Source: Siderastrea siderea | Lineage: Eukaryota; Cnidaria; Anthozoa; Scleractinia; Rhizangiidae | Assembly (NCBI GenBank): GCA_964030785.1 | Contig: OZ034975.1 | Span: 40,864,569 to 40,928,568, forward strand | Length of the DNA stretch: 64,000 bases | Direction of reading: 5' to 3' | Part shown: one piece after another, positions 4,965 through 64,000 of the stretch | Numbering within the stretch: position 1 is the first letter of the stretch | How the letters are laid out: every line of letters starts with the position of its first letter | Position numbers and translations under genes: made by a program | The notes under the pieces: generated by a model | What the model was told of the DNA's origin: nothing | The model's database searches: none | Seen by the model: only the letters and a program-made list of their open reading frames with translations

Positions 4965-6396
4965 AATCTCGAGCACTGTTTACTTCAACGCCTTGCAACC
5001 CATCGTTTGCGTTGGAAGGGCAGAACATCACTCTTGTGTGGAACTACACTCTTTCTGATCATGTTTACTCTGCCCGGTTTTACAATGTCACCGAAGGCGG
5101 AAGTATGCGAATTGCCATTGCATCTGGAGGAAGCACATTTGTGGAGTCCAATTTCCAAAAACGATTTAGAGCAGACATATCAGACACCCAGGCAAGGCTG
5201 ATCATTCTTAAAGCGCAAACATCGGACCAAGGAAGATACCGTTTTTATCTGTTTTCCTTGTTATTTTTCGAGAGACTGAGACACACGGTGGAGTTAATTG
5301 TACAGTGTAAGTAAAAAAGGGAACAGAAATGGACTTCTTTTTAATGTTTAATTTTGGAAGCTTGAGATCACATTAAATTTTACGAACATTATACCTTTGT
5401 AATTTTACCATCAAAGTTTGCGCGATAATAACAAACTAGTTCTCCTTTTGTTAGCCCCAGCAAAGTTCACTAATGTTAGCGGTGAACAAAAAGTGCATGA
5501 AGGCCTAGACCTGCAGTTGTATTGTGAAGCATCTGGTAAACCAGCACCAAATATCACCTGGACCAGAGTGTTTGACAATGGAAGTGAGAGCAAAGTACTG
5601 CACAGGGAAACCACTTGGAAAATTATGAACATTAACCGAAAGAATGCTGGAACATTCCACTGCACAGCCAATAATGGAGCCGGAAATCCAGCTAGTCATG
5701 CGATTGAAGTGAATGTCTTATGTAAGTCATGTAATTTTAAAAAGGGTAGTTAATTAGAATTATTCTGGGGGGCAGGAGACGGGATTTCATAGGTGTAACG
5801 GCTTACAAACAGACCACAGTTTTAAATAAACCTCGGAAACATGAATCGCCATAGTTGGAAGGTCTTGGAATGTAAACAGATGTACAAGAAGGATTCAGCA
5901 GATTAAGGGAACCTAAGTCATCGAAACGCAACTCTGAATGCTGTTTTCTAACGCTCCTCAAAGTTATAACGGAAACTGAACAGGGTAGCATTGGACAACC
6001 GGGCTTAGTTCGCCGAACTGAATGAAAACAGAGTGCCTGTTACAGGCCTATGGTTCATAAACCACTACTGAAGCAAACATAGGAGCAAAGACGTCCCGCG
6101 TATGATTTAACTTTCGGTAACATTTTCCATTTTTCACCTAGATCCTGCAAAAATTATAAGACGTCCTCAAAATAGCAGCATTGAAGTTGGAGGATTCTCA
6201 GCTTTTTTGTGTGAAGCAGAGGGAAATCCCACTCCAGTTATAACTTGGACACGCGATAAAACGAATGAGATTATTGGTTACGGAAGGACGATAGTTTTCT
6301 GTTCAGCTCAGCTCTTTGATGAAGGATGGTACACCTGTGGTTCAAACAATGAATTAGGTCCTGAAGACAGGGCGAGTGTCTACCTTGAAGTCACAG
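4965..6396 (+). CDS. Receptor A exons for Ig-like domains 1-3
   Basis: Three phase 1-1 exons each encode one Ig-like domain. Exon 4965-5306 is a V-like domain with the buried Trp (ITLVWNYTL) and a DQGRYRF F-strand, but it lacks both canonical disulfide cysteines. Exon 5455-5721 is a regular I-type domain ([19 protein letters not shown] ... GTFHCTANN). Exon 6142-6396 is also regular ([16 protein letters not shown] ... GWYTCGSNN). Several N-x-S/T sites are present. The acceptors end in CTAG, TTAG and CTAG, and the donors are GTAAGT, GTAAGT and GTAAGA. Together they form the ligand-facing ectodomain. Confidence 0.85.
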
Positions 6397-9300
6397 GTAA
6401 GAATGATAATCTGTTGTCAGCCCCCAAACTTTCTGAACTTGTAATCCCTCCCCATGTTTGAATATTGAACTGTTATAAGGGATGCATTGGTTAAGCATAT
6501 CGAACGAAATTAAGACGCTCGAATACAATTGAAGAGTAGCGCATAGTCACTGAAGTCTTTCAAATAGCTCTATTTTAGAGGTGGTTTACTTTGGTAAACG
6601 CTTGCTTTTTAAATATATGTATACGTTGCAACATTTTTTAGCTTTGTTATGTCCTTCTTTTTTCATCTTGTCTCGTCCTTTCCTTGGGTGTCATTTTTAC
6701 CTAAAGAGCAACGACATTGAAGGACAATGTAATGTCGTTAATTATTCATGAGTTCATCTCATGTAAACGTAGCTCACGTGATCAGACAGTGAAATTACAG
6801 AATAAGTTTTACCGTTCATGTTACACTAATGCTTTGTCAAAGAGGAAACCTTTGCTTTCGTCATGTTTCTTCACCATTTCCTGGGATGCAATTTTTCTAC
6901 TCTTGTACTTTCGTACTACGTATGGTTTAAACTAATGAATTTGTAATACTAAATAGTCTTCCGGTGAAGTCAGGCTTGTTTATTCACTTTCAAGGAAGAA
7001 GGAGTGGCACACTGATCAATGCAACCATGAAAATAAGTAACGTGGAATATCATGAAAGTCTTAGGTACCTTGAGGGTGAAAGATCTCAATCCTTGATAGC
7101 AAATGTTAGGAAGGCGGTAAGTGCTACATTCAGCCGTTTTATGAATGTAAAACAAGCAATAAATACACCGTATTCGGAGTTTTTGGTCGATAATAGGCGC
7201 CGATATTTTACGAGTTGTGTACTATTTTTCCGAGACCCACAGTGGCGAAGGAAAAATGCTGGCAATGAGTAAAATGTCCACTCATATTAGTAGTATTGTC
7301 CGCCCAACTGGGCCACTGCGTCCGCATCTATTGGATGACGAAGTCTTTTGGGTAGAAAGAGAAAAAAAGGAAGGTGGGTCAGCCGGGATTCGAACCCGGC
7401 ACCTCTGGATTCCCACTTACGAAACCTACCAGAAGGTTTCGTAAGGGTAGTGAATAGGTTCTAGTCATGCGTTATGACTCGGTACCAGACCCTAAGCCGC
7501 CGCCTATTGTTCTATTGTTTTGATTGACAGCTGTCAGCCGCCATCTTGGTTGACCCTAATCCTAGGGTTATTTGCATATTAAGGTCCGCCATCTTGGATC
7601 CGCCATCTTGGATTTAGCCGCCAGCTCAACCTCGTCCCCAGGGCCTTCTCCTCGTTCAAAATGGCGGTCGGAGAAACCCCTGGGCAAGGCTGCTGAAATA
7701 CTCCAAGAATCGTGGAGTATTTTGTCACGTGACACATGATGAAACGGCTTTTTCGAAGGTTGGCTTCAGCGTCTGGCGGCCCTCTTTGTCTTTTTGCAAT
7801 CTGAAACTGTTATTCAAACGGAACGAATACATTTCAAAGTGTTTACGTGACAAAATTCTAACGAATTTTTGGAGCCCTTTTGGCAGCCTTGGCCAGGGGT
7901 TTCTCCGACCGCCATTTTGAACGAGGAGAAGGCCCTGGGCACGAGGTTGCCGCCATCTTGGATTTGGCCGCCATCTTGGGTTTTCATACTCCTATATATT
8001 CTTTTAACCCTGAGTCTTATATGTTCTAAGTCTTTTTTGATGTCTAAGTGTTTTGAAATAGTTTTTACTAAGAAAAAGGAAGGGGGGTCGTCCGGGATTC
8101 GAACCCGGCACCTCTGGGTTCCCACTTACGGAACGGAGTAGCAGAACGAGGTTTCGATCCTTGGACCTCTGGGTTATGAGCCCAGCACGCTTCCACTGCG
8201 CCACTCTGCATTTCATGAAGGAGGTGAATAAAAAAATAAAATAGAAATTGACCCAACCAGGACTCGAACCTGGAATGTTCTGATCTGGAGTCAGATGCCT
8301 TACCATTAGACCACTGGGCCCATTTGTGGGTAGAGTAAGGGAAATGGTTCTGTCTTTTAGGTCCCAGTTTCCCACGTTTGAGATTGCTTGAACTCAAAAC
8401 AAAACGAGATCTACGAGGTGCCCGCAACGATCTCTAATCAATGAATACCTGATGGTCATCAACCGAACCTGCTCAACCGGGAGATAGAAAATGGGTTACG
8501 TGATGCTATGAATGACACCCTTGACCCCACGTGATAGGTTATTTTCACAATCGAATCCAATCGTCTGACTTCCAACTACCAAGGATGGGGATTGCAACGT
8601 TTGGGGGAGTCGAACCCACTACTTTTGGTTTTGAAATTTGTTACCTTAACCACTGAGCTGTTCACCCAAGTGGCAAAAAACTAAGGATAATAAGTGAAAG
8701 TCTTTCCTACCCACCCCTAGTTGCTATGGAGGCAATGAACCAATCATGATTTAGCTTTACTAATATTTTATTTACATGACTGTCAAACATCTAGACGAGG
8801 TGTGTAATACTGAGCTGAAAAGATTCATTCTCCATCCATTGATCAACAGATACAATTATTATCTACTCATTTTGAACTGTTGCTTGAGAACCCTTTTGTT
8901 TTTGGTGTGGACATGTCCGGGCAAAACCTATCTAGGGTGCCTCTTAAACGAGTAATATCTAGTGGTTGTGCGAAAGTGCTCCTCATGATCCTTGATCTTT
9001 TTCCTCAGATCCCATGTTATCTATCTTAGCCTGACTCTCATCGGGTTTATTTGTGACAGACTCCACTTTTTCTGTTGAGACAGTAGACATGACCGGTGTG
9101 ATTGTCGCTTGTTTCCAACAGCTTGCTTTGTCGTGGCGGTCATTATTGTATTTACGACTAAAGGGTCTTTGGCAATATTGACAAAGATGGGACATCCTAA
9201 CCCCTGTGTTTCAGTTGCTCTTCTACTCGGAATGAGTACTAAATGCTTGACATCAGTTTATATAGGTAACCAGGCTAATTGACAAATGGTTCACCATATG

Positions 9301-12300
9301 CTCCAAAAGAGTAACGTCAACAGACAAGTTGTTATGACGTCATCATGTGGTGAGCATTACTTTTGTTGAGCCACTCTTTCTGTCAATCCTCTGTAGTTAG
9401 CTCAGGGTAGCTTCGAGTAGCTCAAACCAACTTGATTCAGTTTCATACCAACCTTCTTTCTCATCCAACCTTCTTTCCCTCCTCCTCATTTCCTCCTCAT
9501 TTTACTCCTTCTCATCCCTCCTCCTCATTCCCTCCTCCTCAAACTAACCATTTAGGAACATACAACTTAACTATCCACCCGAGTGGTGAAATGGGTAGGG
9601 TCATTCTACTCGAGGAAAAGGTTTACTATGGAAACCTTACTCAAAAACTTTTGTTCAACCACTCTCTCTATAGCTAACTCTCTCTCTCTCTCTATAGGTA
9701 ACTCAAGGTAGCTTCGAGACAAGACAATAATTGTGACAAAATCAACTTTGGAGAGTTTACATGACAATTTTATTTGCATTCGTTGCAATACAATTGAACA
9801 AATTGGTCTCATAACCAACTTTGTTTGCTTTCCACCTCTTCCGTAGGTTCCCCTACGTCTTCATTCTCTTCAGTGGCTTCGCTGTCTTCGTCATTCACCT
9901 CCATGGTTTCATCTTCATGCTCTTCTTCATCAGTACTTTCTTCTTCAGGGACTGGTCGGGGCTTAAAAATTCTGTTTAATAAAAATTTTCTCCGATCCAC
10001 AGCAGCTTCTGCAGCTTCCTCGTAGTCCATTTCATCCTCCTCATTCATAAACCTCTTTAAGGTTTTCATCACTTCTTCATGTATAGGATCCTTTTTCATT
10101 TGTCGAGACCATTTCAAATATTGTAGGTAGAGTCTCCTTAATTTTGCTCTGAAAAACGGTAACAAATCGTTGAAGGCCTTAGCTTGAGCCACTACTTCGG
10201 AGGCCCCCTGTTTCATTAACAGCTCCACCTGTGTGGCGTAGCGCTTACTAAGAGCTAGTTTTGCTTTTTCACGGAGATCTTCCCATGGATCATCGATTTC
10301 ATCTTCCACTTCACTACCGCTTTCGATTCCCCTGTCAACCGTTTCATTATCTTTATCATCATTTGAAAAGATGTCAGTCAATTCATTTTCTGGGGAGATA
10401 GTGGTCATGGTTGTGTTTTCTTTTGGTTGGTAAGCTAAACGACAACCCTGCTTCTTGTGACGGTTTCTATTGTAGCTCCGTTTGAATGATTTTAGACAAT
10501 ACTGACAACTGTAGGCCATACAAGAGTTCCTACTGGTTTAATGGTCATTTACTCAATGCGAGCATCAAACGTTTGACACTCATTTATATAGAGTAAGTTA
10601 CTATACAAGATCCTATGATGTGAGATGGGTAATATTTAGGACTCCTCCTCATTTGTGCTCATTTTTGTGCTCATCGTGCTCATTTTTGTGCTCATTTGTG
10701 CTCATTTGTGCTCATCGTGCTCATTTTTGTGCTCATTTGTGCTCATCGTGCTCATTTTTGTGCTCATTTGTGCTCATCGTGCTCATTTTTGTGCTCATTT
10801 GTGCTCATCATGCTCATTTGTGCTCATCATGCTCATTTTTGTGCTCATTTGTGCTCATCGTACTCATTTTTGTGCTCATTTGTGCTCGTTTTTGTGCTCA
10901 TTTTTGTGCTCACTTGTGTTCATTTGTGCTCATCGTGCTCATTTTTGTGCTCATTTGTGCTCATCGTGCTCATTTTTGTGCTCATTTGTGCTCATCATGC
11001 TCATTTTTGTGCTCGTTTGTGCTCATTTGTGCTCATCGTGCTCATTTTTGTGCTCATTTGTGCTCATCATGCTCATTTTTGTGCTCATTTGTACTCATTT
11101 GTGCTCATCGTGCTCATTTTTGTGCTCATTTGTGCTCATTTTTGGTGTTACGCATTTTGACGTTAAACATTTTGGTGTTACACATTTTATGTATTACGCC
11201 TTTTGGCGTTACGCATTTTGGCGTTATGCATTTTGGCGTTACGTCACTGCTCCTCCAGTACGCTTCCACTGCACCACTCTGCATGTCATACAGATATATT
11301 TTTTAATTTTTTCTATGAGTTTACCATGAATTGGGGGTGTAGCTCAGTGGTAGAGCATCCGCTTTGCAAGCAGAGGGTCCGGGGTTCGAAACCCTGCACT
11401 TCCATTCTTTAGATTAAGTGTTGTGTCTATATTTTTAATTTTTTCTATGAGTTTACCATGAATGGATATCAATATCTTCAGCCTTGAGTCTGCAGGTGTA
11501 GACAAGTTGGCGTGAGGACGCTATATGAAGAAATGATCTATTGTGACGTCATAGGGCAAGTCTGGGCAAGATGGGTTAAAACAAAGGGATGACGTCAACG
11601 GGCAAGTGTAAACATGTTAGCGTGGGGACGCCAACTTGTCTACACTTGCAGACTCAAGGCTGAAGATATTGATATCCATTCATGGTAAACTCATAGAAAA
11701 AAATTAAAAATATACACACAACACTTAATCTAAAAAATGGAAGTGCAGGGTTTCGAACCCCAGACCCTCCACTTGCAAAGCGCATGCTCTACCACTGAGC
11801 TACACCCCCAATTCATGGTAAACTCATAGAAAAAATTAAAAAATATATCTGTATGACATGCAGAGTGGTGCAGTGGAAGCGTACTGGAGGAGCAGTGACG
11901 TAACGCCAAAATGCATAACGCCAAAATGCGTAACGCCAAAAGGCGTCATACATAAAACGTGTAACACCAAAATGTTTAACGTCAAAATGCGTAACACCAA
12001 AAATGAGCACAAATGAGCACAAAAAATGAGCACAAATGAGCAGAAATGAGCAGAAATGAGCAGAAATGAGCACAAATGAGCACAAAAATGAGCACGATGA
12101 GCACAAATGAGTACAAATGAGCACAAAAATGAGCATGATGAGCACAAAAATGAGCACAAAAATGAGCATGATGAGCACAAATGAGCACAAATGAGCACAA
12201 AAATGAGCACAAAAACGAGCACAAATGAGCACAAAAATGAGCACGATGAGCACAAATGAGCACAAATGAGCACAAAAATGAGCATGATGAGCACAAATGA

Positions 12301-13731
12301 GCACAAATGAGCACAAAAATGAGCATGATGAGCACAAATGAGCACAAAAATGAGCACGATGAGCACAAAAATGAGCACGATGAGCACAAATGAGCACAAA
12401 TGAGCACAAATGAGCACAAAAATGAGCACGATGAGCACAAAAAGGAGAACAAAAATGAGCATGATGAGCACAAATGAGCACAAATGAGCACAAAAATGAA
12501 CACAAAAACGAGCACAAATGAGCACAAAAATGAGCACGATGAGCACAAATGAGCACAAATGAGCACAAAAATGAGCATGATGAGCACAAATGAGCACAAA
12601 TGAGCACAAAAATGAGCATGATGAGCACAAATGAGCACAAAAATGAGCACGATGAGCACAAATGAGCACAAAAATGAGCACGATGAGCACAAATGAGCAC
12701 AAAAATGAGCACGATGAGCACAAATGAGCACAAATGTGCACAAAAATGAGCACGATGAGCACAAAAATGAGCACAAATGAGGAGGAGTCCTAAATATTAC
12801 CCATCTCACATCATAGGATCTTGTATAGTAACTTACTCTATATAAATGAGTGTCAAACGTTTGATGCTCGCATTGAGTAAATGACCATTAAACCAGTAGG
12901 AACTCTTGTATGGCCTACAGTTGTCAGTATTGTCTAAAATCATTCAAACGGAGCTACAATAGAAACCGTCACGAGAAGCAGGGTTGTCGTTTAGCTTACC
13001 AACCAAAAGAAAACACAACCATGACCACTATCTCCCCAGAAAATGAATCGACTGACATCTTTTCAAATGATGATAAAGATAATGAAACGGTTGACAGGGG
13101 AATCGAAAGCGGTAGTGAAGTGGAAGATGAAATCGATGATCCATGGGAAGATCTCCGTGAAAAAGCAAAACTAACTCTTAGTAAGCGCTACGCCACACAG
13201 GTGGAGCTGTTAATGAAACAGGGGGTCTCCGAAGTAGTGGCTCAAGCTAAGGCCTTCAACGATTTGTTACCGTTTTTCAGAGCAAAGTTAAGGAGACTCT
13301 ACCTACAATATTTGAAATGGTCTCGACAAATGAAAAAGGATCCTATACATGAAGAAGTGATGAAAACCTTAAAGAGGTTTATGAATGAGGAGGATGAAAT
13401 GGACTACGAGGAAGCTGCAGAAGCTGCTGTGGATCGGAGAAAATTTTTATTAAACAGAATTTTTAAACCCCGACCAGTCCCCGAAGAAGAAAGTACTGAT
13501 GAAGAAGAGCATGAAGATGAAACCATGGAGGTGAATGACGAAGACAGCGAAGACACTGAAGAGAATGAAGACGTAGGGGAACCTACGGAAGAGGTGGAAA
13601 GCAAACAAAGTTGGTTATGAGACCAATTTGTTCAATTGTATTGCAACGAATGCAAATTAAATTGTCATTTAAACTCTCCAAAGTTGATTTTGTCACAATT
13701 ATAGTCTGGTCTCGAAGCTACCTTGAGTTAC

Positions 13732-13777
<46 letters not shown>

Positions 13778-16700
13778 AGCTATAGAGAGAGTGGTTGAAC
13801 AAAAGTTTTTGAGTAAGGTTTCCATAGTAAGCCTTTTCTTCGAGTAGAATGACCCTACCCATTTCACCACTCGGGTGGATAGTTAAGTTGTATGTTCCTA
13901 AATGGTTAGTTTGAGGACGAGGGAATGAGGAGGAGGGAAAGAAGGTTGGATGAGAAAGAAGGTTGGTATGAAACTGAATCAAGTTGGTTTGAGCTACTCG
14001 AAGCTACCCTGAGCTAACTACAGAGGATTGACAGAAAGAGTGGTTCAACAAGAGTAATGCTCACCACATGATGACGTCATAACAACTTGTCTGTTGACGT
14101 TACTCTTTTGGAGCATATGGTGAACCATTTGTCAATTAGCCTGGTTACCTATATAAACTGATGTCAAGCATTTAGTACTCATTCCCAGTAGAAGAGCAAC
14201 TGAAACACAGGGGTTAGGATGTCCCATCTTTGTCAATATTGCCAAAGACCCTTTAGTCGTAAATACAATAAGGACCGTCACGAGAAAGCAAGCTGTTGGA
14301 AACAAGCGACAATCACACCGGTCATGTCTACTGTCTCAACAGAAAAAGTGGAGTCTGTCACAAATAAACCCGATGAGAGTCAGGCTAAGATAGATAACAT
14401 GGGATCTGAGGAAAAAGATCAAGGATCATGAGGAGCACTTTCGCACAACCACTAGATATTACTCATTTAAGAGGCACCCTAGATAGGTTTTGCCCGGACA
14501 TGTCCACACCAAAAACAAAAGGGTTCTCAAGCAACAGTTCAAAATGAGTAGATAATAATTGTATCTGTTGATCAATGGATGGAGAATGAATCTTTTCAGC
14601 TCAATATTACACACCTCGTCTAGATGTTTGACAGTCATGTAAATAAAATATTAGTAAAGCTAAATCATGATTGGTTCATTGCCTCCATAGCAACTAGGGG
14701 TGGGTAGGAAAGACTTTCACTTATTATCCTTAGTTTCTTGCCACTTGGGTGAACAGCTCAGTGGTTAAGGTAACAAATTTCAAAACCAAAAGTAGTGGGT
14801 TCGACTCCCCCAAACGTTGTAATGACGGCATACACTCCCCGATAGTGAGTTGTAATACATTGTTAATAAAGTTGAAATTGTTTCAATCCCCATCCTTGGT
14901 AGTTGGAAGTCAGACGATTGGATTCGATTGTGAAAATAACCTATCACGTAGGGTCAAGGGTGTCATTCATAGCATCACGTAACCCATTTTCTATCTCCCG
15001 GTTGAGCAGGTTCGGTTGATGACCATCAGGTATTCATTGATTAGAGATCGTTGCGGGCACCTCGTAGATCTCGTTTTGTTTTGAGTTCAACCAATCTCAA
15101 ACGTGGGAAACTGGGACCTAAAAGACAGAACCATTTCCCTTACTCTACCCACAAATGGGCCCAGTAGTCTAATGGTAAGGCATCTGACTCCAGATCAGAA
15201 CATTCCAGGCTCGAGTCCTGGTTGGGTGAAATTTCTATTTTATTTTTTTATTCACCTCCTTCATGAAATGCAGAGTGGCGCAGTGGAAGCGTGCTGGGCT
15301 CATAACCTAGAGGTCCGAGAATCGAAACCTCGTTCTGCTACTTTTTTTGTCGTGAGGATCTTCATACAATCAACCATCTCGATTGTTGTCATCCATTTCT
15401 AGCTTTGTTTTTGGAAACTGAGCTCCATGGTGGGTAAGCTATCACTTAGTGAAATTTATGTCAGTCTTTCGCCACTTGGGTGGACAGCTCAGTGGTACAA
15501 TTCTCAATTTCAAAAACTCAAAGTTTCCAAAAATGTTAAGGGTTCGACTCCCCGTTGTAGAGTTGTAATGACGGCATGCACTCCCCGATAGTGAGTTGTA
15601 AAATTCGTGACGATAAATCTCTTAACTCTTGATGATTTGGTACTCCCGCGGTTTGTCCAACAGGGTTGAATGATTTCACAGCATACCCATGTTCAGCGTC
15701 GACGATAATGATCTCATAATCTACAAGATGATCTTGAAACAAGTGTCCCGCATGAATTCATAGTTCAAATATTCCTTGCCTTCAACATTTGAGTTCAACG
15801 AAAAGAGATCGTTGCGGGTTACTCGCAGATCTCGTTTTGGAGTCTGGGTCCGAGTCCTAACCCATCACTAGAACCCATTCACTTAGTCTCTCAATCAACG
15901 GGTCGATGGCCCTCTGGTATGTTCCGTAAGTGGGAACCCAGAGGTGCCGGGTTCGAATCCCGGACGACCCCCCTTCCTTTTTCTTAGTAAAAACTGTTCC
16001 AAAACACTTAGAACATATAAGACTTAGGGTTAAAAGAATATATAGGAGTATGAAAACCCAAGATGGCGGCTAAATCCAAGATGGCCGATCGAAGATGGTG
16101 GACCTTAATATGCAAATAACCCTAGGGTTAGGGTCAACCAAGATGGCGGCTGACTGCTGTCAATCAAAACAATAGAACAATAGGCGGCGGCTTAGGGTGG
16201 GAATCCAGAGGTGCCGGGTTCGAATCCCGGCTGACCCACCTTCCTTTTTTTCTCTTTCTGCCCAAAAGACTTAGTCATCCAAAAGACTTAGAGTAGGGTT
16301 AAAAGCGACATATAGGAGTATGGCGGATCCAAGATGGCAGCAAACCCACGTGTAGGAGTATATTAATGAGATGCACCCTTTCTCAGAATCCAAACAATAG
16401 AACAACCCACGAAAACAATAGATGTGGACGCAGTGGCCCAGTTGGGCGGACAATACTACTCATATTATCGACCAAAACACCGAATAAAAGGTTAATTTCT
16501 TGTTCCACTGCATTTTGTTTTTACTTTATCCTCCTTCAGCAAAAAAAAAAAAAAAAAAAGAAGCGGATCAAACCGAGATTGTACAGTGTAATACGCTGGC
16601 ATATTTTGAGCGTTATCTTGACCTTATACGGTAAAATAACACAACAGTGGAATTATAAACATTAGTGTTACAATGGAATTTCTCAGGAATGACAATTCGG

Positions 16701-31239: not shown

Positions 31240-31640
31240 TCGCCGGAGCCGGAGGTACCACTGAATTAGTTGAAGGTACAGGTTGATCAGTGGGAGTTAC
31301 CGCTGCATAAGTGGCTTGTGGAGCTTTATAATTAGCCGGAGGTATCACTGAATTAGTTGAAGGTACAGGTGGATTAGTGGGAGCTACCGCTGCATAAGTG
31401 GCTTGTGAAGCTGTAACTGGAGGTACCGCTGCATTAAATGAAAGTACAGGTGGATAAGTGGGAGCTACCGCTGCATAAGTGGCTTGTGAAGCTGTAACTG
31501 GAGGTACCGCTGCATTAAATGAAAGTACAGGTGGATAAGTGGGAGCTACCGCTGCATAAGTGGCTTGTGAAGCTGTAACTGGAGGTACCGCTGCATTAAA
31601 TGAAAGTACAGGTGGATAAGTGGGAGCTACCGCTGTGGGA
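31240..31640. repeat. 81-bp in-frame minisatellite (27-aa units)
   Basis: Three near-identical 81-bp units (CTGTAACTGGAGGTACCGCT...) and two diverged ones at the outer (3' coding) end. The length divisible by three and open minus-strand frame across the array suggest it evolved as coding repeats. Confidence 0.85.
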
Positions 31641-35721: not shown

Positions 35722-38700
35722 GTAAGTCTAGAAACGCAGTACAATCGGGTATTCGAAACAAATGCAACATCACACTTACATGAACCAACGAATTAAGTGG
35801 AACAAACACAATTCAGCAATTCAGTAACTGCCCTCAGTCTATGAGGAAGCCAGGAGAAGTGATAAATTTGGTCACTTCCAAAGGAGTTTTATCCAAACTA
35901 CTAGGTATTTTCGCTGTCCTTTAGTTGTAAAACCAGTGACGTGCTTGGTCCATGTGTTTTGTGCTTCTTTGTTGTTTGTAGCTAAGCGGTATCAGTATCA
36001 AATATTTCTTGCCATTTTCATCGGCCTCGTTGTAGTCTGAATACTGCCGTTCCTCGTCGCTCCCGGCCGCTGACGGTCAAGATGTAGTTATCTTGCCAGG
36101 GATGTGATAACCTAAAATGGTAACTTGATCTCAGTATTAGTCATTCAGGGCATCGCTTCTTCTCCTTACGATAATTTAGGTGTTGTCGGTTTTTTAATGT
36201 GGCCTTTAGATGACGTCTCTGTCGCTGCAGCCCTTTCGTTTCCGGTTGACTTGACATCTCTTGTAATGGTGAAATGTGAAATTTAAACAAATAGCCTCAC
36301 TTAAATATGCAACCTTTGCAGCAAACAGGGTCGAAGAGTACCAAAGCAAATACTTTCTATTCCTTTTAATAGCTTTCATTCAGTTTGAAAGCTACATTTT
36401 AGGTTTATCTCAAGTTGTATTTAAGTATCTTTTAAGTTTAATTTCACCCACGAGGTCAAAATGTTAAGATCGGCTCGTATTTTCATCTAAGGCAACAGGC
36501 AATATTTAAAACTAAAATGCATACTTGTCTAATAATTCTACCGGCACTCAAATCAACAAGTTATCGTAGGTGCTTAGTTTGCAATAAATGGTAATTCTCC
36601 TTTTAAAGTAAGAGCTTTATTGACCTTTGCGAGCTCACTTAAGATAAATACGTTTGAGTTTATAGGACAAGCACCCAGTAGAAGGAGAGTAAATATGTAT
36701 GTCCCCGCCTATTTTTTTAGCAGATTTGGCCAGGAAACGGCCATATATATTGACTATTTTGGTTTGAAAATAGTTATGTTTCACCTTCTAGTCTGGGATT
36801 AGGTATAAACGTTTGTTTAACATTTTGGCTCGAAAAGAAAGGAAATTTTGCGTGTAAGGTCTGAACATTGGTAGGAAAATCGCATACAAGTTTGGTCTGA
36901 AGAGGGAGGCGCAAGGTTTTAAACAAGGTGGCCGCACACCCTCACCAAATCGTTTAAGGATTGGCCCAAAGAGTACCCATCCCTGGGTAAAGGCCAGGCA
37001 GGATAATTAGCGAAACGTTTAACCTTTCCCCGCACCCGCCGGGGAGAGCACATGACACGTTTGGATGTAGGGGTTCCGCTGAGGGTATGAAACTCTGACC
37101 CTGTTTAGGACAAAAAATGCCCTAAGATACTAACCCTGTTCGGGACAACACGTTCCATTTTAGGTTCCTGTTTAGGACAAATGGCAAAATGCACATTATC
37201 TTGCATGTTTCACACTTAAGTGTTTTAGAAACCGACAAATGTTACCGATCTAGGATTGCTGAATGCTGTATGAGCCGTATTTGACGGTAATCGTGCAACC
37301 ATACCCCGTGTAGGACAAGTGCAAACCCTGTTTAGAACAGACTAACATAAAAGTACATGCCCTGTTTAGGACAGAGACGCCAAAAACCATGCCATATCCA
37401 GCGGCACGTATAAGGGAGTACACCCCCTTCCGCCCCACCATCACCACCACCACTACTAACAAGAGTTGAACCGTCAACCGAAAAAAATATCAGACAAGTT
37501 ATAATCGTCAAATTGCAACTAAGGGTGAGGCGTCTAAAGTTAAAACGGTAAATATTCACTGACTGCAAAGTTTAGCCCCCCGCCCCCGTAAGTCATTCTT
37601 TGGGAGAGAGGGGTTTTTTTTATTGGTCGTTTGTTCTTTATTTACTTTTTTTTTGTTTTGTTTCTGCTTGCCTGTGTTTGTCAAGCCAACTGTAAAAGCC
37701 ATAACATATGAAACGTTCATTTTTTGTTCAACCTTTTGTTTGTTTGTTTTTTTTTTTAGTTCTAGAGGCTACAGTAACTGAATTCACTTCAAGGCCTCCA
37801 AACAAGTTGTCTGTACTGGAAGGGCAAGATATCATCCTTGTGTGGAGCTACACTCTTGATGGTGGAGTTGGCCTAGCCAAGTTTACTAATGTCACTGGCG
37901 GTGTGAGAGATGAAATTGGAAAGACATTTACCACTGGAAACGTACCTCTAGGATCCAATTACCAAGTAAGGTTCCGTGCAGAGGTATCTAACACCCAGGC
38001 AAAGCTGAGAATTCTTGCAATACAAATATCAGACCAAGGAAAGTATGAGTTTGACATCACTGCCAGTGCTGTTGGAGGTGGTGACATCATACATGTAGTG
38101 GAGGTGATTGTACAGTGTAAGTACTTTCAGACCAGTAGAAAAGTAGTCAGTATCCCTAGTTTCTTATTGCCATTTAGAGTCGTAGTTGGAATCCTACAGA
38201 CTCCTAAAAGATCTTACAAGATCCAACAAAATTATAAAGGACACTGTGTAAGTAGTGTAAGTTATGAAAAGTTTAATAGTTCACATGGAGTCCCTTTTTT
38301 GCACGGGCTATTTTCCAAGTTAATCGTACCTTATTTACCTAGCGCGCTAATCCGAAAATTTTCACAACTGTCGCGGTGAAGACAACTGTAGAGACAGGTG
38401 TAGGGAATACTTTTCATTAAGATTAAAAGTCACTGGGTTCAAAATCTGTAACTTAAATCCATTGTTAGTTTTTGTGTTCTCCGGTTGTTCCTTAGACAAT
38501 GAATTTGCAATTAATCTATTAGCCAGGAGTATTTGTAGTTAAAACATCCTCCCTGAAAGCCAAAACAGTCTATCAGTCGCCTCGCAACTGTTAGATTCTG
38601 GGCACGGACCCCTAATGTACATATGTCCTCGGCAGTTTAGTAATTGGCACCTATCATCTGAGTTGGACAGTCTAGCCCGTTTGATATCGCGGGATCGCCT

Positions 38701-58129: not shown

Positions 58130-59090
58130 GCAGATAAAGAATCTTTTTTCCAAAAAACCATTTAAACAAATACGCGAGCATTCTTGTACAAGCATATTCG
58201 TGGCGCTCATAACATGGGCTGAATACGCCCTTTTTAATCCATATTGAACCTCTGGGGCTGAGGATTTTCCCTTGTGGGCAGCCACTTCTGTGGGATCGAA
58301 CACCGCGAGTAATTGCAGCGCCACCTAGTCCCAAACAAATACCGATGTCATAAGCACACTGTTATTTTTAATCGAGGCTCTTCTGTCTCAAAAATGCATG
58401 AAATAAATACGCCGATACACTCTAGGATTTGTAATGCCTAACAGTAAACCCCCTACTTGCGCGAGGGAGTAATAGCTGGGATTCACTGTGCACTGCAATG
58501 TCGTCGTTGATTGACAGATTTTACAATACACGATGCGACTATAGACATTTTTAGGGACGCAATATCAATGCATGAAAGCTTTTTTTCCATCAAAAGGTGA
58601 TTTTACAAAGTATTTCTGTAGAACTTTATGCTTTAATACACCTAAAAAAAGTATTACCTACAATATGCGATTACATCTATTGACTTTGCCCATGTCATGC
58701 GTCACGCAATCTTGTTCTTGTAACATATTCCGATACTGTTCCGGAATGTTACTTTAATCAGTTTGTTTGCGGCTAAGTGATGACAAATTTCGGGAAAACA
58801 ACGCTATCATATGTCCAGCAAGCTACAGCTAATACAGTACCAATCATAACGATGGAGTAGAGGATTATTTTAATCAGACAGAAAATGGAAAATTTTAAAA
58901 ACACGGTAAGATAAAGCTTAATGTTATGCATATGTTGCGGTTTCGAGTACTAAAACAAGCGGTGCGTGTATTGGTCGTAGTTCAAAAACAACACTTAACT
59001 TCAGCAGACACTATGTAAAATTATTCTGCAAGCCCCTTAAGTAAATTTGCGAAGGTTTATCCGGCATTTCTGGCAGTGAAAACGGAGTAG
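58130..59090. repeat. Right arm of a large inverted repeat
   Basis: Inverted copy of 54661-55790. It ends less than 500 bp from the 3' end of the viral-type polymerase gene. A truncated version of the hydrophobic open frame is on the minus strand with a frame break near its start. Confidence 0.7.
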
Positions 59091-59569
59091 TAATGTCGGC
59101 CCATATGGGTAATTTTCCCACGGTAATTTGCATACACACCCCCTGTTCTGATGTGTGATTGGTTATGGGGTTGCGCATAGTAACGCCACGGACCAGAAGG
59201 ATCGTGGGCTCAAGGGGAAGGGACCGGAAATGACGTCACCGGAACCGGAAGTGACGTCACTGTAAGTGACTAAAACCGGAAGTCACGTGTTTTGGGATGG
59301 GAAACCGCTGACCAGTCGGAAAAATGGATCGTGGGCTCAAGATGGGACAAAACCACGGAGAAACGCGGGCTCAAAGTCCAAAGTCCAATTTGAGCATCGG
59401 GGGTGGTCCCTGGACTCCAAAAAAAAATAAAAATAAATTAAAAAAAAAACGCCATGTTGGAAAAAAAAACTGAGTGTTACATGTCTAACAAAGAGTTCCA
59501 ATCCAGACGACCGCAGGGGGGTCCTTTACTGGCAAACTCAAAAGGCTCTTCCTACGTGGAATGACTGTC
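59091..59569. other. 3' flank of the polymerase gene with short repeats
   Basis: GGATCGTGGGCTCAAG occurs twice (59199-59214 and 59327-59342), with three ACCGGAAGT(G/C)ACGT blocks between them. TGACGTCAC occurs twice. A-rich tracts follow at 59418-59470. The virus-like element probably ends within or just left of this stretch, but no terminal repeat was identified. Confidence 0.45.
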
Positions 59570-62500
59570 TCATTGGTATCCGTACGGATAGGTGCGGAAA
59601 GTGAGGGGATCGACCACTCTCTTATCGTACACCAGTCGGTATTCTTTCTTTTGCGGATACGTGTACAGTTCATAGGTTTTAGGATTTCGCACGATGTGGT
59701 GGGTTTTGTAGACGGAGGTCTCACGCGGTTTCAGGAGTGGCTTTTGGATTTCCTCCAATACGTTCTGCTTCATGACATTGTAGTTTAACTGGGTTTTTCC
59801 CTCACTGTTGAGGCGAAAACCTCGGACTTTACACTCCACTTTGCCTTTCTTTGTGGTGTAACCATAATTCTTGGGACCACCCGACACGAATTCCAGAATG
59901 TAGTCTTTATCATCTAATTCACTCGTAAAATCGCCGAGGTAAGGACCCAAGTCTGGGTTGGGTTGTCCCTCGTCTGTGTAGTAGATGATGGAGTCTGTGT
60001 CGTAGTACAAGACCCGTTCTCCTAAGGGTTCCAAGGTCTCGTAGAGTTTGAGCCGGGCGTGACAGGTCGTGAAACAGGCGATGAAGATGTTGAGGTTGGG
60101 TGAGACGGGGATGTCTTCCTTTTGGTGCTGATAATGCACCTCCACTATTTGGTCGTTGATAATGGACACGTGACGTACATCCAAGCTATCGGTGTCCAAA
60201 AACCGATGAAAGGCTTGGGGGTCATCAAATTCTTGGACTTGGGTCTTGTTGAGTCGTTGTCCAAATTTACCCCACATCGAATTGAGCATCATTTTAGCCA
60301 GGGTACGCAACCCTGGATTCTTTTTGATCTTGTCGTACTCCAGTTGGATGCCCTCATGCTCGTAATAATTGTTGATGTAGGCCTGTCTTTGTTCTTCTGT
60401 TTTTACATCGGCGGGCCACCCACTGGCTTCCTGTTTGATTTTCAACCAAGTGTTGACATAGTCTTCGAAGAGTCCTTGACACGTTTCTTTAAAATGCCAG
60501 ACCTCATAGATGTACAGGACTTCGTACCCGAGCTCGACGGCTTTCTCTAATTCTGGTGTGCACCATGTACTTGTCAGGGCGCGTTCCTCGTCGGTGTGAG
60601 GGCAATGATATGATCTGTCTAGAAGGGGTTTGTCCATTTCTTCTTCCACACAACGGGCACAGAGAGGAAAGAGCAGTTTGCTGTCATGGCGGTAAGGCAG
60701 GACGGGATGGTACAGTTCACGTGGAGGGAGGACTTGACATTGGATCAACCCAAAGTACTGGTGGATGTCCGTGTGACCCAGATGTGTAATAAAGGTTGGA
60801 TGTCCTTTACGGTAGACAGAGGTTTTGTTGACCCAAGGGTACAAGGAGGTCACATCGATGTAATGGATCTTTTGGTTGGGGGTGACCTCATGGTACAGTT
60901 TCACCGCATTGGTACGTCCTCCACAGAAAGCGTCGCGTGCATTCAGGGGTTTTGTGCTTTGAAGGTTAGCTACAAACGTACGGATGTCAGGTGAGGTGTC
61001 TTTGAGACTGGCCCAATCGCATCCCCACATTTCCACCACGGTGTATCCTTGTTCTCTTAAATGTTCGGTCCTTCTTTGGGTGGCCTCGTAGACATCTTGC
61101 ATGGTGCGATCACAGTGGCGTCGATGTGTTTCGTGACGGTTGGGGAAACAGCGAGTACATCCATGCCAGAAACAACCGTGATATTCGTAGATAGTGTGGG
61201 TCGTGACATCGAAACCGTCCACATGGAGCTTGGTGCCAGGGATGCGATACTCGCCGGCATTTTTCGCATGTTGAATATGGGGGGCTTGGTGTTGTTGGCA
61301 CCAGGTTAACCATTCGATGGCCTCGTGGGATTGATTGACGTTATTCTTCTTCCAACCAAGGGTGGGTTCACTGGCAATACTGTTGGGGATCATCCGGTTC
61401 ATGCGTAAATCCATGTTGCAAGCAGAGGCAATGGTGATGTGGTCAAAGGGGTTGAACCCCGCTTGAGCTTCAAACAATCGTTTGAAAGTCAGACATCGTT
61501 GTTTCAAGAGACGTACATCGGATTTACAGTATTCCAGCAATTCTTTTTGGAAATCAAACACGACGTTATTGGCACGCTGCTCTTGATGCCATGTTTCCAG
61601 GGCTTGCTTGCCTTCGACAGACATGGTTTCAGGCATGTAGTAATCGAGGGCCGGGATGGGTCCCACGTACGTTTGGTTGCCCACGATATTGAACGTGTGT
61701 GGGAAGTAACCTTTTTTCACTTCCGTTAATCCAAAGGTTTTGGGAAAGGCGGACAAAGGCATCTGGAAGAAGCTGAGTGAATCGATGAAACGAATCCTGT
61801 CATGCTTGACTTCTAGTAGTTTACACCCGTTGCGGAGCTGCTGGACGATCCGGTTGTCACTATGGTATTGACGCACGACAAAGTACCCATCACATCCCTG
61901 GAAGTTATGGGCAAGGACATTGACTTGGCGGGTGTCGTTCAACGTGAGGGTATCCAACCATTCGAGAAAATCTCGGGTGCAATAGGGGCCTGGGAAACAC
62001 ATGGGTTGATCGTTGTCTTCGGTTTCGGCCACGAGGAGATTAGCAATGTGTTGTTCGTTGGGTTGCATGGCTTCAATATCAAAGAAGACATGCAAGGGTG
62101 GCAGGTCCTCCTCCTCCTCCTCTGGGGTGGTTTCTGGCTCCGTGGTTGCTGCCCCTCGTTTGGCGCGAGGCCCTCCTTGGTGTTTCCTCTTTCTTTTCTT
62201 CTTGTCTTGAGGCTTGGGGGCTCTTTGAATAAAACAAAGATGAGTTTCACCGTGCACGTACTCATGGCAAGACGGGCAGTCCACGAAGTAGCATTGGTGT
62301 CTGGCAATCTGTTGTAATCCAACGTCCAGTTTAAGACAGGTAGGACAGCGACGGCGACGAAAGCACACGGAGGACTCTAGGTTGGTCACGGGTTTGCCAG
62401 CGTGGTCCTTGACGAGATGTGCTTGGAAGCAAGCGTCTCCGAAAAAGTCGCGATGACATTGTTGGCAACGTTGAGTGGCTTTGAGATGTCGAGGGTAAGC

Positions 62501-63724
62501 ATGAAGAAAATCAGGGCACTCTTTTTGGCAACAGGCCCTGCAATGACCTTTTTGTTGGGTGCATCGATGTCGTCCCTCATCGTTATAGGGTTTCCAACAG
62601 TAGGCACAGACGTAACTGGACCCGAAAAACCCAGGCAAACGCGTAATGACGTCATAATGGCCTTGGCCGTGCAGTAGGATCAGTTGTTTGTGTTGTGGGT
62701 CTCCATAGGTGGTGATGTGAAACGACCGTTGAGCATCCACCAGGATGATCTGGTAGCCAGTCAGGGACGGGGCTTTACTGAAGGCCGTCAACGCCTCGTA
62801 GCTGCAAGGACCTGGAGGGACGCGAGCTTCTTCATGGAGCTGCAACGCGAGTTCCCTTTTAAGTTTCCCTCCTTTTCGAATCGATTCCCATTTCGGGTGT
62901 TGGTCCAGGCGAGTTTTGGCGACCACGAGGGCTCTGGAGCAACAGAGTTCATCTTCATTTTGAATTCTGATGATGCTTCGTTTCTGACTTGTTAATAGTT
63001 GCATGGTGGGGTGACCTGGTTTGCTACGACGCGGTTTGCCAGTTCCCTGAGGAGCATGTTGAACTTGAGTAATGGATAATTGAAAGGAGTCATCCATTTC
63101 AAATTGCTCGTTGCTGTTGAGGGCTTGCGCTAGACGGTGGAATAGGGCCTCCACACGCTCTCTGTCTTGACGCCATTCACCAGCACGTAATCCCCAGCCC
63201 TGAAAATTATTGTGCAGGCGATTGGAGGCGATGGTGAAGTAGAGGCGATCTTGATCGTGGAGCTCAGGCGTGGTGGCTAACACTTGATTCACCGCTCGAC
63301 GTAAAGCATCTTGTAGGGCTTCCGTGATGTTTTGACCTGGAATCAAGTTCCCCGTTTGGCGTAAACGGGTGTTGAAATGACGTTCATGAACACCCATACG
63401 CGTGCTCCGACGGTTGACATAATTGCCGATTTGAACCTCGAAGGCGCCCTCTGCACTGGCATCCAAGCCTCCACCAGTTTGTTGAAGGAGATTGGTTTGA
63501 AAGGCACGTTGCCGTTCGAAACGATCCAAGACCTCTTGACAGATGTCATCCTCGTCACGGCAAGCCATCTCTTCGCTGTCTCCCATCTCTTCAGGACATA
63601 ACAGGTTTGTCTCTTCTGGCTCTGAATCGGACATCTCTAGACCAAGCAATGGTAACAATTCTTGGCGGCCGAGACCGCTTGGCCCCGCCGCCTCCTCCTC
63701 CTCCTCCTCTTGGTGAGAGGACAT
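59570..63724 (-). CDS. Protein-primed-type family B DNA polymerase of a Polinton/Maverick- or adintovirus-like element
   Basis: Intact 1384-residue frame. Residues 5-11 are poly-Glu; 373-500 hold a run of Cys/His pairs (zinc-binding); 507-523 are a basic, NLS-like patch. Exonuclease motifs: FFDIEAM (547-553), AHNFQGCDGYF (605-615), YCKSD (732-736). Residues 828-905 form an insertion with VDGFD, YEYHGCFWHGC and a closing WGCDW that looks like a Vsr/PD-(D/E)xK nuclease fold. Palm motifs: DVTSLYP (957-963), KMMLNSMWGKFG (1144-1155), YYDTDS (1240-1245). All catalytic acids are present. It would replicate a linear element from a protein primer. No integrase, ATPase or capsid gene is in view; they would be expected beyond 64000. 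TATAAAA lies about 35 bp upstream of the ATG on the minus strand. Confidence 0.85.
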   Translation of the reverse strand: MSSHQEEEEEEAAGPSGLGRQELLPLLGLEMSDSEPEETNLLCPEEMGDSEEMACRDEDDICQEVLDRFERQRAFQTNLLQQTGGGLDASAEGAFEVQIGNYVNRRSTRMGVHERHFNTRLRQTGNLIPGQNITEALQDALRRAVNQVLATTPELHDQDRLYFTIASNRLHNNFQGWGLRAGEWRQDRERVEALFHRLAQALNSNEQFEMDDSFQLSITQVQHAPQGTGKPRRSKPGHPTMQLLTSQKRSIIRIQNEDELCCSRALVVAKTRLDQHPKWESIRKGGKLKRELALQLHEEARVPPGPCSYEALTAFSKAPSLTGYQIILVDAQRSFHITTYGDPQHKQLILLHGQGHYDVITRLPGFFGSSYVCAYCWKPYNDEGRHRCTQQKGHCRACCQKECPDFLHAYPRHLKATQRCQQCHRDFFGDACFQAHLVKDHAGKPVTNLESSVCFRRRRCPTCLKLDVGLQQIARHQCYFVDCPSCHEYVHGETHLCFIQRAPKPQDKKKRKRKHQGGPRAKRGAATTEPETTPEEEEEDLPPLHVFFDIEAMQPNEQHIANLLVAETEDNDQPMCFPGPYCTRDFLEWLDTLTLNDTRQVNVLAHNFQGCDGYFVVRQYHSDNRIVQQLRNGCKLLEVKHDRIRFIDSLSFFQMPLSAFPKTFGLTEVKKGYFPHTFNIVGNQTYVGPIPALDYYMPETMSVEGKQALETWHQEQRANNVVFDFQKELLEYCKSDVRLLKQRCLTFKRLFEAQAGFNPFDHITIASACNMDLRMNRMIPNSIASEPTLGWKKNNVNQSHEAIEWLTWCQQHQAPHIQHAKNAGEYRIPGTKLHVDGFDVTTHTIYEYHGCFWHGCTRCFPNRHETHRRHCDRTMQDVYEATQRRTEHLREQGYTVVEMWGCDWASLKDTSPDIRTFVANLQSTKPLNARDAFCGGRTNAVKLYHEVTPNQKIHYIDVTSLYPWVNKTSVYRKGHPTFITHLGHTDIHQYFGLIQCQVLPPRELYHPVLPYRHDSKLLFPLCARCVEEEMDKPLLDRSYHCPHTDEERALTSTWCTPELEKAVELGYEVLYIYEVWHFKETCQGLFEDYVNTWLKIKQEASGWPADVKTEEQRQAYINNYYEHEGIQLEYDKIKKNPGLRTLAKMMLNSMWGKFGQRLNKTQVQEFDDPQAFHRFLDTDSLDVRHVSIINDQIVEVHYQHQKEDIPVSPNLNIFIACFTTCHARLKLYETLEPLGERVLYYDTDSIIYYTDEGQPNPDLGPYLGDFTSELDDKDYILEFVSGGPKNYGYTTKKGKVECKVRGFRLNSEGKTQLNYNVMKQNVLEEIQKPLLKPRETSVYKTHHIVRNPKTYELYTYPQKKEYRLVYDKRVVDPLTFRTYPYGYQ

Positions 63725-63967
63725 GATCAGATGAACTTGGTGGTGATCGGTGTTCGTTTTTTATAGAGAAAAAAGGTCCCGTGGGAGAATGGGGTGAACC
63801 AATCACCAAACAGGACACAGGGTGCCCTAGAGAGGGGGTGCCCTAGGGAGGGGTGGGAAGGGGTGGGGGGACCCCCCTCCCCCCTCTCTAGTTGGGGTCC
63901 ATGGGGCATGACGGGAACGAATGAGAGACTATAAAACAGATCGACCCTCGAGGTGAGTCATCCCAAG
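63725..63967. promoter_or_regulatory. Compact divergent promoter between polymerase and a rightward gene
   Basis: A minus-strand TATA (CTCTATAAAAAAC, about 63754-63766) serves the polymerase. A plus-strand TATA (CTATAAAAC, 63929-63937) serves the gene at 63968. Between them is a C/G-rich stretch with GGTGCCCTAG(A/G)GAGGGG repeats and a GGGGGGACCCCCC palindrome. Both TATA boxes stand 30-40 bp from an ATG, as in compact viral genomes. Confidence 0.6.
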
Positions 63968-64000
63968 ATGGACTCTGTTCATGAGAAGCTGCTCGAAGCA
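63968..64000 (+). CDS. Start of a gene running off the window
   Basis: ATG at 63968, 31 bp after a TATAAAA box, opens a frame (MDSVHEKLLEA) that is still open at the window edge. Too short to identify; position and orientation suggest another gene of the same element. Confidence 0.4.
   Translation, partial: MDSVHEKLLEA

What the first reader, a model, noticed from the sequence alone, without database searches (positions are those of the whole stretch)
7166..16487. A 9.3-kb palindrome carrying two zinc-finger genes and several tRNA genes per arm inside a receptor intron
Two arms of more than 4 kb are inverted copies around a centre of about 95 bp. Each keeps intact small CCHC-finger genes with TATA promoters, tRNA genes for iMet, Trp and Ala, and a large minisatellite. 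I know of no named transposon with this gene set. The layout suggests fused long terminal inverted repeats of a linear DNA element whose interior is absent, or a self-sufficient paired-arm element.
Basis: partly seen in the sequence, partly recalled or inferred. Interest (0 to 1): 0.9.

Follow-up and report, generated by a model that had tools for sequence, protein, structure and literature searches.

The report
Palindromic satellites of Polinton virus-like elements
The 9-kb palindrome is one insertion of a family of mirror-image mobile elements that bear the ends of Polintons (virus-like elements that also live in this genome) and probably borrow their copying and integrating machinery, while carrying zinc-finger genes of their own.

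Summary
It is not a one-off. The genome (831 Mb, probably a stony coral) holds dozens of paired copies of the same zinc-finger gene, in at least four subfamilies. In the 8 elements seen end to end, the ends read AGTAGTA or AGAGTA; the flanking 6 bp are duplicated exactly in 7 and at 5 of 6 positions in the other. These are the published end motif and duplication of Polintons/Mavericks. The same window holds a Polinton starting at 59086, whose first 24 bp match the palindrome at 20 positions. Three relatives carry, in both arms, the last 112 codons of a Polinton DNA polymerase, reading outwards as in the Polinton. In 15 sequences tested, the next 500 polymerase residues, integrase, ATPase, protease and capsid-like queries found nothing. 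Six copies share one asymmetric centre, so the palindrome moves as a unit. Best reading: gene-bearing Polinton satellites, born as snap-back genomes and dependent on Polintons in trans. The trans supply and the snap-back step are inferred, not shown.

The parts
7289..16460 (.). palindromic element, 9172 bp, ends AGTAGTATTGTCCGC on both sides
7283..7288 (.). left copy of 6-bp target duplication CATATT
16461..16466 (.). right copy of 6-bp target duplication CATATT
7289..11522 (+). left arm
11523..11618 (.). unpaired centre, about 96 bp, axis 11570.5
11619..16460 (-). right arm
9809..10519 (-). 236-aa zinc-finger protein with acidic linker and helical DPW domain, left copy
12910..13620 (+). 236-aa zinc-finger protein, right copy (8 codons differ from the left copy)
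8983..9195 (-). 70-aa single-finger protein, left copy
14219..14431 (+). 70-aa single-finger protein, right copy
8138..8210 (-). tRNA-Met (initiator-like by my reading), left
8249..8320 (-). tRNA-Trp, left
11332..11405 (+). tRNA-Ala, left
11737..11810 (-). tRNA-Ala, right
15158..15229 (+). tRNA-Trp, right
15269..15341 (+). tRNA-Met (initiator-like by my reading), right
10648..11141 (+). minisatellite rich in GTGCTCA between zinc-finger promoter and centre, left
12001..12781 (-). the same minisatellite, right, longer
11140..11243 (+). 15-bp repeats TTTTGGCGTTACGCA; similar repeats in centres of subfamily C
11899..12002 (-). 15-bp repeats, right
7627..7949 (.). 322-bp dispersed repeat inserted in the left arm only (not part of the element proper)
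59086..64000 (+). start of a Polinton (runs past the window end; its other end was not found): probable helper type, end 20/24 identical to the palindrome
59570..63724 (-). family B DNA polymerase (DNA_pol_B_2) of that Polinton

Best explanation
It is a non-autonomous, gene-bearing satellite of Polintons (Mavericks). A Polinton end folded back on itself during protein-primed, strand-displacement replication and was copied into an inverted duplication with two identical Polinton ends. Such a molecule keeps the replication start (AGT repeats) and the integrase recognition ends, so a resident Polinton can copy and integrate it, giving the 6-bp target duplication. Between the ends it carries its own cargo in both arms: a zinc-finger protein with paralogous single-finger proteins, in A and C minisatellites between the divergent promoters, and variable extras (tRNA genes; a DprA-like SLOG gene; a 182-aa gene). 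Passage through a hairpin or snap-back form would keep the two arms identical while preserving the asymmetric loop. Shown: Polinton-type ends and target duplications, polymerase-gene remnants in both arms of three relatives, movement of the palindrome as a unit, arms (nearly) identical when copied. Likely: constraint on the zinc-finger gene. Inferred: supply of enzymes in trans, the snap-back step, and the zinc finger's role (my guess: binding the repeats to control transcription or replication).
For: 6-bp target duplication exact in 7 of the 8 elements with both ends in view, 5/6 in the eighth. Ends AGTAGTA (6) or AGAGTA (2), against published Maverick ends (AGT)2 or (AG)3 with 6-bp duplications (PMC8097293, section 7 read, passages). 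Window Polinton end matches the palindrome end at 20/24; the next-best site in the window has 16/24. Polinton identity: PolB, integrase core above its cut-off, chromodomain just below, and adenovirus-protease and Pox_A32-type ATPase matches below cut-off. The genome has many PolB genes: 74 of 2638 candidates scored, 204 matches. Last 112 PolB codons in both arms of L011, L014 and L015, reading outwards; in L015, where both ends are in view, about 730 bp from the end. Six B copies share one asymmetric centre at 98.7-99.8%, with 0 fixed differences between arm types in 798 columns. Variants shared between copies lie on both arms of every carrier in 4 of 5 (B) and 25 of 27 (C, 1-kb run; 6 of 6 in the 2-kb run). 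dN/dS 0.13-0.25 for the six A-B and A-C comparisons.
Against: No copy was caught moving and no extrachromosomal form was seen. The PolB remnant was found in only 3 of 15 sequences; the window element, L052 (B) and L050/L051 (D) show none. Zinc-finger hits are not near a polymerase (0 of 150 within 25 kb of 75 PolB places, nearest 46.7 kb; both lists truncated), so the cargo's source is unknown. In B only 1 of 6 elements (L032; L024 ties) has arms closer to each other than to other copies. dS is near saturation, and not computable in 12 of 21 comparisons. Chromosomal gene conversion between arms could also homogenise them. Subfamily D has only two AG units, not three.
Confidence: 0.75

Rival explanations
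1. Dead-end defective copies: each palindrome is a separate accident of Polinton replication with no lineage of its own.
For: PolB remnants in some copies only and outer arms with different ORFs from copy to copy suggest repeated capture of ends.
Against: Six copies on six chromosomes share the same asymmetric centre, and the same zinc-finger family recurs in all four subfamilies with few amino-acid changes relative to silent changes where this could be measured.
Confidence: 0.12
2. A self-sufficient palindromic element whose zinc-finger protein is itself the replication or integration enzyme.
For: Present in every subfamily; many copies.
Against: No catalytic domain by Pfam (matches only to zinc-finger and weak unrelated models); the model is a finger, a disordered linker and a helical domain with no fold match at E <= 0.001. 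Ends are like those of a helper type present in the same window.
Confidence: 0.06
3. A fold-back DNA transposon (FB, TU or Galileo type) with unusually long inverted repeats.
For: Long inverted repeats with minisatellites.
Against: Target duplication length and ends are those of Polintons, not the longer duplications I recall for FB (9 bp) and TU (8 bp); PolB remnants in the arms of three relatives.
Confidence: 0.03
4. Misassembly, or a host palindromic gene cluster kept identical by gene conversion.
For: Very similar arms; tRNA genes.
Against: Target duplications at the outer ends of unrelated sites, several independent copies, arm-specific indels and an arm-specific 322-bp insert.
Confidence: 0.02

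Closest known systems
Polinton/Maverick elements
   Same: (AGT)2 or AG-type ends, 6-bp target duplication, inverted terminal repeats, PolB 3' end reading towards the terminus in three relatives
   Different: Queries for the rest of the polymerase tested, integrase, ATPase, protease and capsid-like genes found nothing; the arms make up almost the whole element; own zinc-finger genes and, in A and one D copy, tRNA genes. Vertebrate Maverick inverted repeats are 46-1447 bp (PMC8097293 section 7), against about 4.2 and 4.8 kb here
AAV snap-back subgenomic particles (PMC8235507, abstract and outline seen)
   Same: Snap-back derivative of one genome end that keeps a promoter and part of a replication gene; the abstract reports that it regulates the parent's rep expression
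   Different: Parvovirus replication (recalled: hairpin-primed, not protein-primed), no separate conserved gene set, not known to me as a germline family
Hairpin/duplex deletion derivative of the kalilo linear plasmid (Vierula & Bertrand 1992; seen only as a reference title in PMC11071308) and palindromic adenovirus defective genomes (recalled)
   Same: Hairpin or palindromic derivative of a protein-primed linear DNA
   Different: Not a family integrated in a host genome with conserved genes, as far as I know
Virophages (recalled)
   Same: Dependent element with its own genes
   Different: They carry capsid genes; here the capsid-like queries found none

Membership tests
Polinton/Maverick | 6-bp target duplication | tested here: met
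   7 of 8 exact, 1 at 5/6; 6 further loci of the 14 in hand did not have both ends in view
Polinton/Maverick | (AGT)2 or (AG)3 end motif in inverted terminal repeats | tested here: met
   (AGT)2 in 6 of 8; published motif. The two subfamily D elements read AGAGTA, only two AG units, so not strictly met there
Polinton/Maverick | protein-primed DNA polymerase B | tested here: not met
   tblastn with the window Polinton's PolB: the last 112 codons in 3 of 15 sequences; the preceding 500-residue piece in 0 of 15. The N-terminal 384 residues were not used
Polinton/Maverick | retroviral-like integrase | tested here: not met
   0 of 15 sequences, one query integrase only
Polinton/Maverick | capsid, packaging ATPase and protease genes | tested here: not met
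   0 of 15 sequences for ATPase, protease, a 479-aa and a 349-aa protein of one Polinton; the last two have no Pfam match and are capsid candidates by size and place only
snap-back / defective genome of a protein-primed replicon | inverted duplication of one parental end | tested here: met
   PolB 3' end in both arms of L011, L014 and L015; both Polinton-type ends in view only in L015. Not met for the window element itself, which shows the end motif but no PolB remnant
snap-back / defective genome of a protein-primed replicon | replicates only with the parent's enzymes | not testable with these tools
   needs cells or expression data
fold-back (FB/TU/Galileo) transposon | longer target duplication and family-specific ends | tested here: not met
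   6 bp and Polinton-type ends; FB/TU values recalled

The most novel reading that the evidence does not exclude
These elements are an old, independent lineage of DNA satellites of an endogenous virus family. They are mirror-image genomes that live in animal chromosomes, use Polinton ends to be copied and integrated, exchange outer arms with one another, and keep their own zinc-finger regulator and tRNA genes to steer the helper or their own replication, comparable to virophages but without a capsid.
Probability: 0.45. Interest if true: 0.85.

Novelty: new variant of a known kind. Interest (0 to 1): 0.75.

Why it matters
Polintons are seen as close to the root of several DNA virus groups (recalled), yet my searches (open-licence papers, showing 10 of 193) listed no paper on satellites that depend on them. 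A palindromic, gene-bearing dependent family would show that the snap-back genomes seen as by-products of DNA virus replication can become long-lived genomic elements with genes of their own. It would also give a natural record of Polinton activity in animals: young copies with perfect target duplications mark recent helper replication.

Tried and rejected
Rejected: misassembly (target duplications, arm-specific insert); termini at 7166/16487; self-sufficiency (no enzyme found by the queries used); host palindromic gene cluster.

Led nowhere: the viral contig collection gave no relative of the zinc-finger protein (alignment of five), of the 226-aa protein as a single query or of the 169-aa protein. 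An alignment of the 226-aa family found 9 distant loci at 25-38% identity, not followed. Structure model of the zinc-finger protein: mean pLDDT 70.9, confident helical core, no fold match at E <= 0.001 in PDB or viral models. My own pattern for histone stem-loops found none. A first B-arm identity matrix included part of the asymmetric centre and was replaced. A search with the outer left arm was swamped by the 322-bp repeat. Three more places with an end nearly identical to the window element's (C5:20432477, C6:3645282, C6:4125435) could not be read. Not run, because the genome search did not complete: whether the 226-aa and 182-aa genes also sit in true Polintons, the outer-arm DNA without that repeat, and the empty insertion site.
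Full report
What is there. The window element runs from 7289 to 16460 (9172 bp). Both ends read AGTAGTATTGTCCGC and the flanking six bases are CATATT on both sides. The arms pair at 96-99% in long blocks, the axis is at 11570.5 and about 96 bp at the centre do not pair. In the global arm alignment the blocks from 8143 inwards are 95.5-99.5% identical; the outermost block is 85.5%, and the blocks at 7551-8142 align at 45-53% because the outer arms are rearranged. The left arm alone carries a 322-bp repeat (7627-7949) with many relatives elsewhere in the genome (40 of 1135 candidates were scored). Each arm holds a 236-aa and a 70-aa zinc-finger ORF pointing away from the centre, a minisatellite, and genes for tRNA-Met (initiator-like by my reading), -Trp and -Ala. 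The 236-aa copies differ at 8 codons (3 silent, 5 not) and the 70-aa copies at 3 (1 silent).

It is a family. A protein search of the window's own genome (831 Mb, 402 contigs, 14 of them 42 Mb or longer) gave 150 scored matches of 684 candidates. Of these, 104 fall in neighbour pairs less than 12 kb apart, 54 pairs; 46 are single (the pairs include tandem hits on contig C169, so not every pair is a palindrome). I fetched 11 stretches and 3, and used these, the window and short loci. Self-comparison shows mirror-image arms in L010-L018 and L050-L052; L019 carries a single gene and is no palindrome. I name four subfamilies. A: window and C12:21648553-21664239 (L009/L010). B: L052 and short loci L024, L028, L030, L032, L034. 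C: L011-L018. D: L050, L051. The arms of L052 carry four ORFs each: 182, 84, 226 and 237-238 aa. The 226-aa protein matches a DprA-like phage family (PHROG 768, E 1.6e-10; Pfam DNA_processg_A E 2.5e-5, below its cut-off). The zinc-finger protein has 122 relatives in public protein data; the only ones with an organism named are from the corals Orbicella, Oculina and Stylophora (120 listed). That, and 14 large contigs, suggests a stony coral as host (inference).

Polinton ends. Of 14 loci in hand (window, C12, L011-L019, L050-L052), 8 show both ends. Seven have an exact 6-bp target duplication and one (L013) matches at 5 of 6. The ends are AGTAGTA in six and AGAGTA in two (subfamily D). Vertebrate Mavericks have (AGT)2//(ACT)2 or (AG)3//(CT)3 ends and 6-bp duplications (PMC8097293, section 7 read, passages). 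The same window carries a Polinton from 59086 to beyond its right edge: PolB 1384 aa (Pfam DNA_pol_B_2) and, 10-17 kb further in on the next stretch (L054), an integrase core (E 1.5e-11, above cut-off) with a chromodomain just below cut-off, plus adenovirus-protease and Pox_A32-type ATPase matches below their cut-offs. Its other end was not found in the 20 kb fetched, so its own target duplication is untested. Its first 24 bp match the palindrome's at 20 positions; the next-best site in the window has 16. The genome holds many such polymerases (74 of 2638 candidates scored, 204 matches).

The arms of some relatives contain a Polinton end. Two PolB pieces, integrase, ATPase, protease and two further proteins of the window's Polinton were searched against 15 sequences (window element, L009-L019, L050-L052; some loci do not hold their whole element). 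Only the C-terminal PolB piece hit, in three: L011, L014 and L015, each in both arms. The match is the last 112 codons, 61% identical in L011 and L015, split into two frames and with a stop in L014. It reads outwards, as in the Polinton: in L015 it lies about 730 bp inside the end at 751, in the Polinton about 480 bp inside 59086. In L011 and L014 both ends are not in view. This is what an inverted duplication of the PolB end of a Polinton would leave. The other six queries hit none of the 15. The queries came from one Polinton and the N-terminal 384 PolB residues were not used, so a diverged enzyme could be missed. The window element itself shows no PolB remnant.

The palindrome moves as a unit and its arms are nearly equal when copied. 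Six B copies on six chromosomes share one asymmetric centre at 98.7-99.8%, three in each orientation, with no fixed difference between the two arm types in 798 columns. Variants shared by two or more copies lie on both arms of every carrier in 4 of 5 cases for B; for C in 25 of 27 (1-kb run) and 6 of 6 (2-kb run). The other variants seen on one arm only are private to one copy (16 in B; 16 and 19 in C). Sites private to one copy but on both arms: 3 in B, 82 and 123 in C, the latter partly because the outer arms of L018 are a different sequence. In C, arms of one element are closest to each other in 5 of 6 elements with both arms compared (L016 is the exception; L011 and L014 had one arm listed). 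In B this holds in 1 of 6 (L032), with L024 a tie. A hairpin or snap-back intermediate explains near-identical arms plus a preserved loop; gene conversion in the chromosome remains possible.

The cargo. dN/dS of the zinc-finger ORF is 0.13-0.25 for the six A-B and A-C comparisons. Within subfamilies it is 0.77 (A), 1.37 (C) and 0.16 (D), and dS could not be computed in 12 of 21 comparisons, so purifying selection over long times is likely but rests on near-saturated values. The predicted structure is a finger, a disordered linker and a helical domain (about 78-190) without a fold match at E <= 0.001. GCTCAT or ACTCAT sites are frequent between the divergent promoters in A and B, and CTCAT sites in most C copies, not in D (no statistical control), which makes autoregulation or origin binding a guess, not a result. 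tRNA genes vary: A has three per arm; the D element L050 has tRNA-His in both arms while L051 has none; L052 (B) and L012, L013, L015-L018 (C) have none; the Polinton itself holds a tRNA-like gene.

Relation to known things. By its ends and duplications it works like a Polinton; by gene content it is not one. Hairpin or snap-back derivatives of viral and plasmid DNA are known: AAV snap-back genomes (PMC8235507, abstract and outline), a hairpin derivative of the kalilo plasmid (reference title only), adenovirus palindromic defective genomes (recalled). A phrase search for non-autonomous or defective Polintons/Mavericks and Maverick satellites found 0 papers. The listings (5 papers; 14; 11; 10 of 193) show none whose title or abstract start describes such elements. 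These searches cover open-licence papers only, and Repbase was not searched.

Limits. Mobilisation in trans is inferred. Zinc-finger hits lie at least 46.7 kb from any PolB place I listed (0 of 150 within 25 kb of 75), both lists being truncated. Whether B outer arms are also Polinton ends could not be tested: after the genome search answered only.

Noticed in passing
L050:3854-3898 and 6105-6149, L051:4111-4155 and 5767-5811: A histone-type 3' stem-loop (Rfam RF00032, 35.6-36 bits against a cut-off of 34) lies just behind the end of the 169-aa reading frame in both arms of both D palindromes; the full frame is present in one arm only of each. The stem departs from the consensus as I recall it at one base. 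It may tie that gene to S phase.
   Followed up: partly
L052:1240-1920 and 7240-7920: A DprA-like SLOG-fold protein (226 aa) is carried in both arms of L052 and has 149 relatives at E <= 0.001 in public protein data, some in large clusters.
   Followed up: partly
L054:2045-2129: A tRNA-like gene (called Gln by ARAGORN, 50 bits in Rfam) sits between the ATPase and protease genes of the window's Polinton.
   Followed up: no
window 37705-49459: A second set of Ig-like and kinase-like frames follows the first, with very similar kinase exons: probably a tandem duplicate of the receptor gene (ORF list).
   Followed up: no
C169:10636-38966: Seven hits to the zinc-finger gene lie close together on a small contig, perhaps an amplified cluster.
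   Followed up: no
L014 right end 9046 and L011:9301-9649: Two subfamily C palindromes carry, on one side, sequence and a tRNA-Trp like those of the outer arms of subfamily A, which suggests exchange of ends between elements.
   Followed up: partly
window 31251-31635: An 81-bp tandem repeat lies in an open frame with proline/alanine-rich repeats.
   Followed up: no
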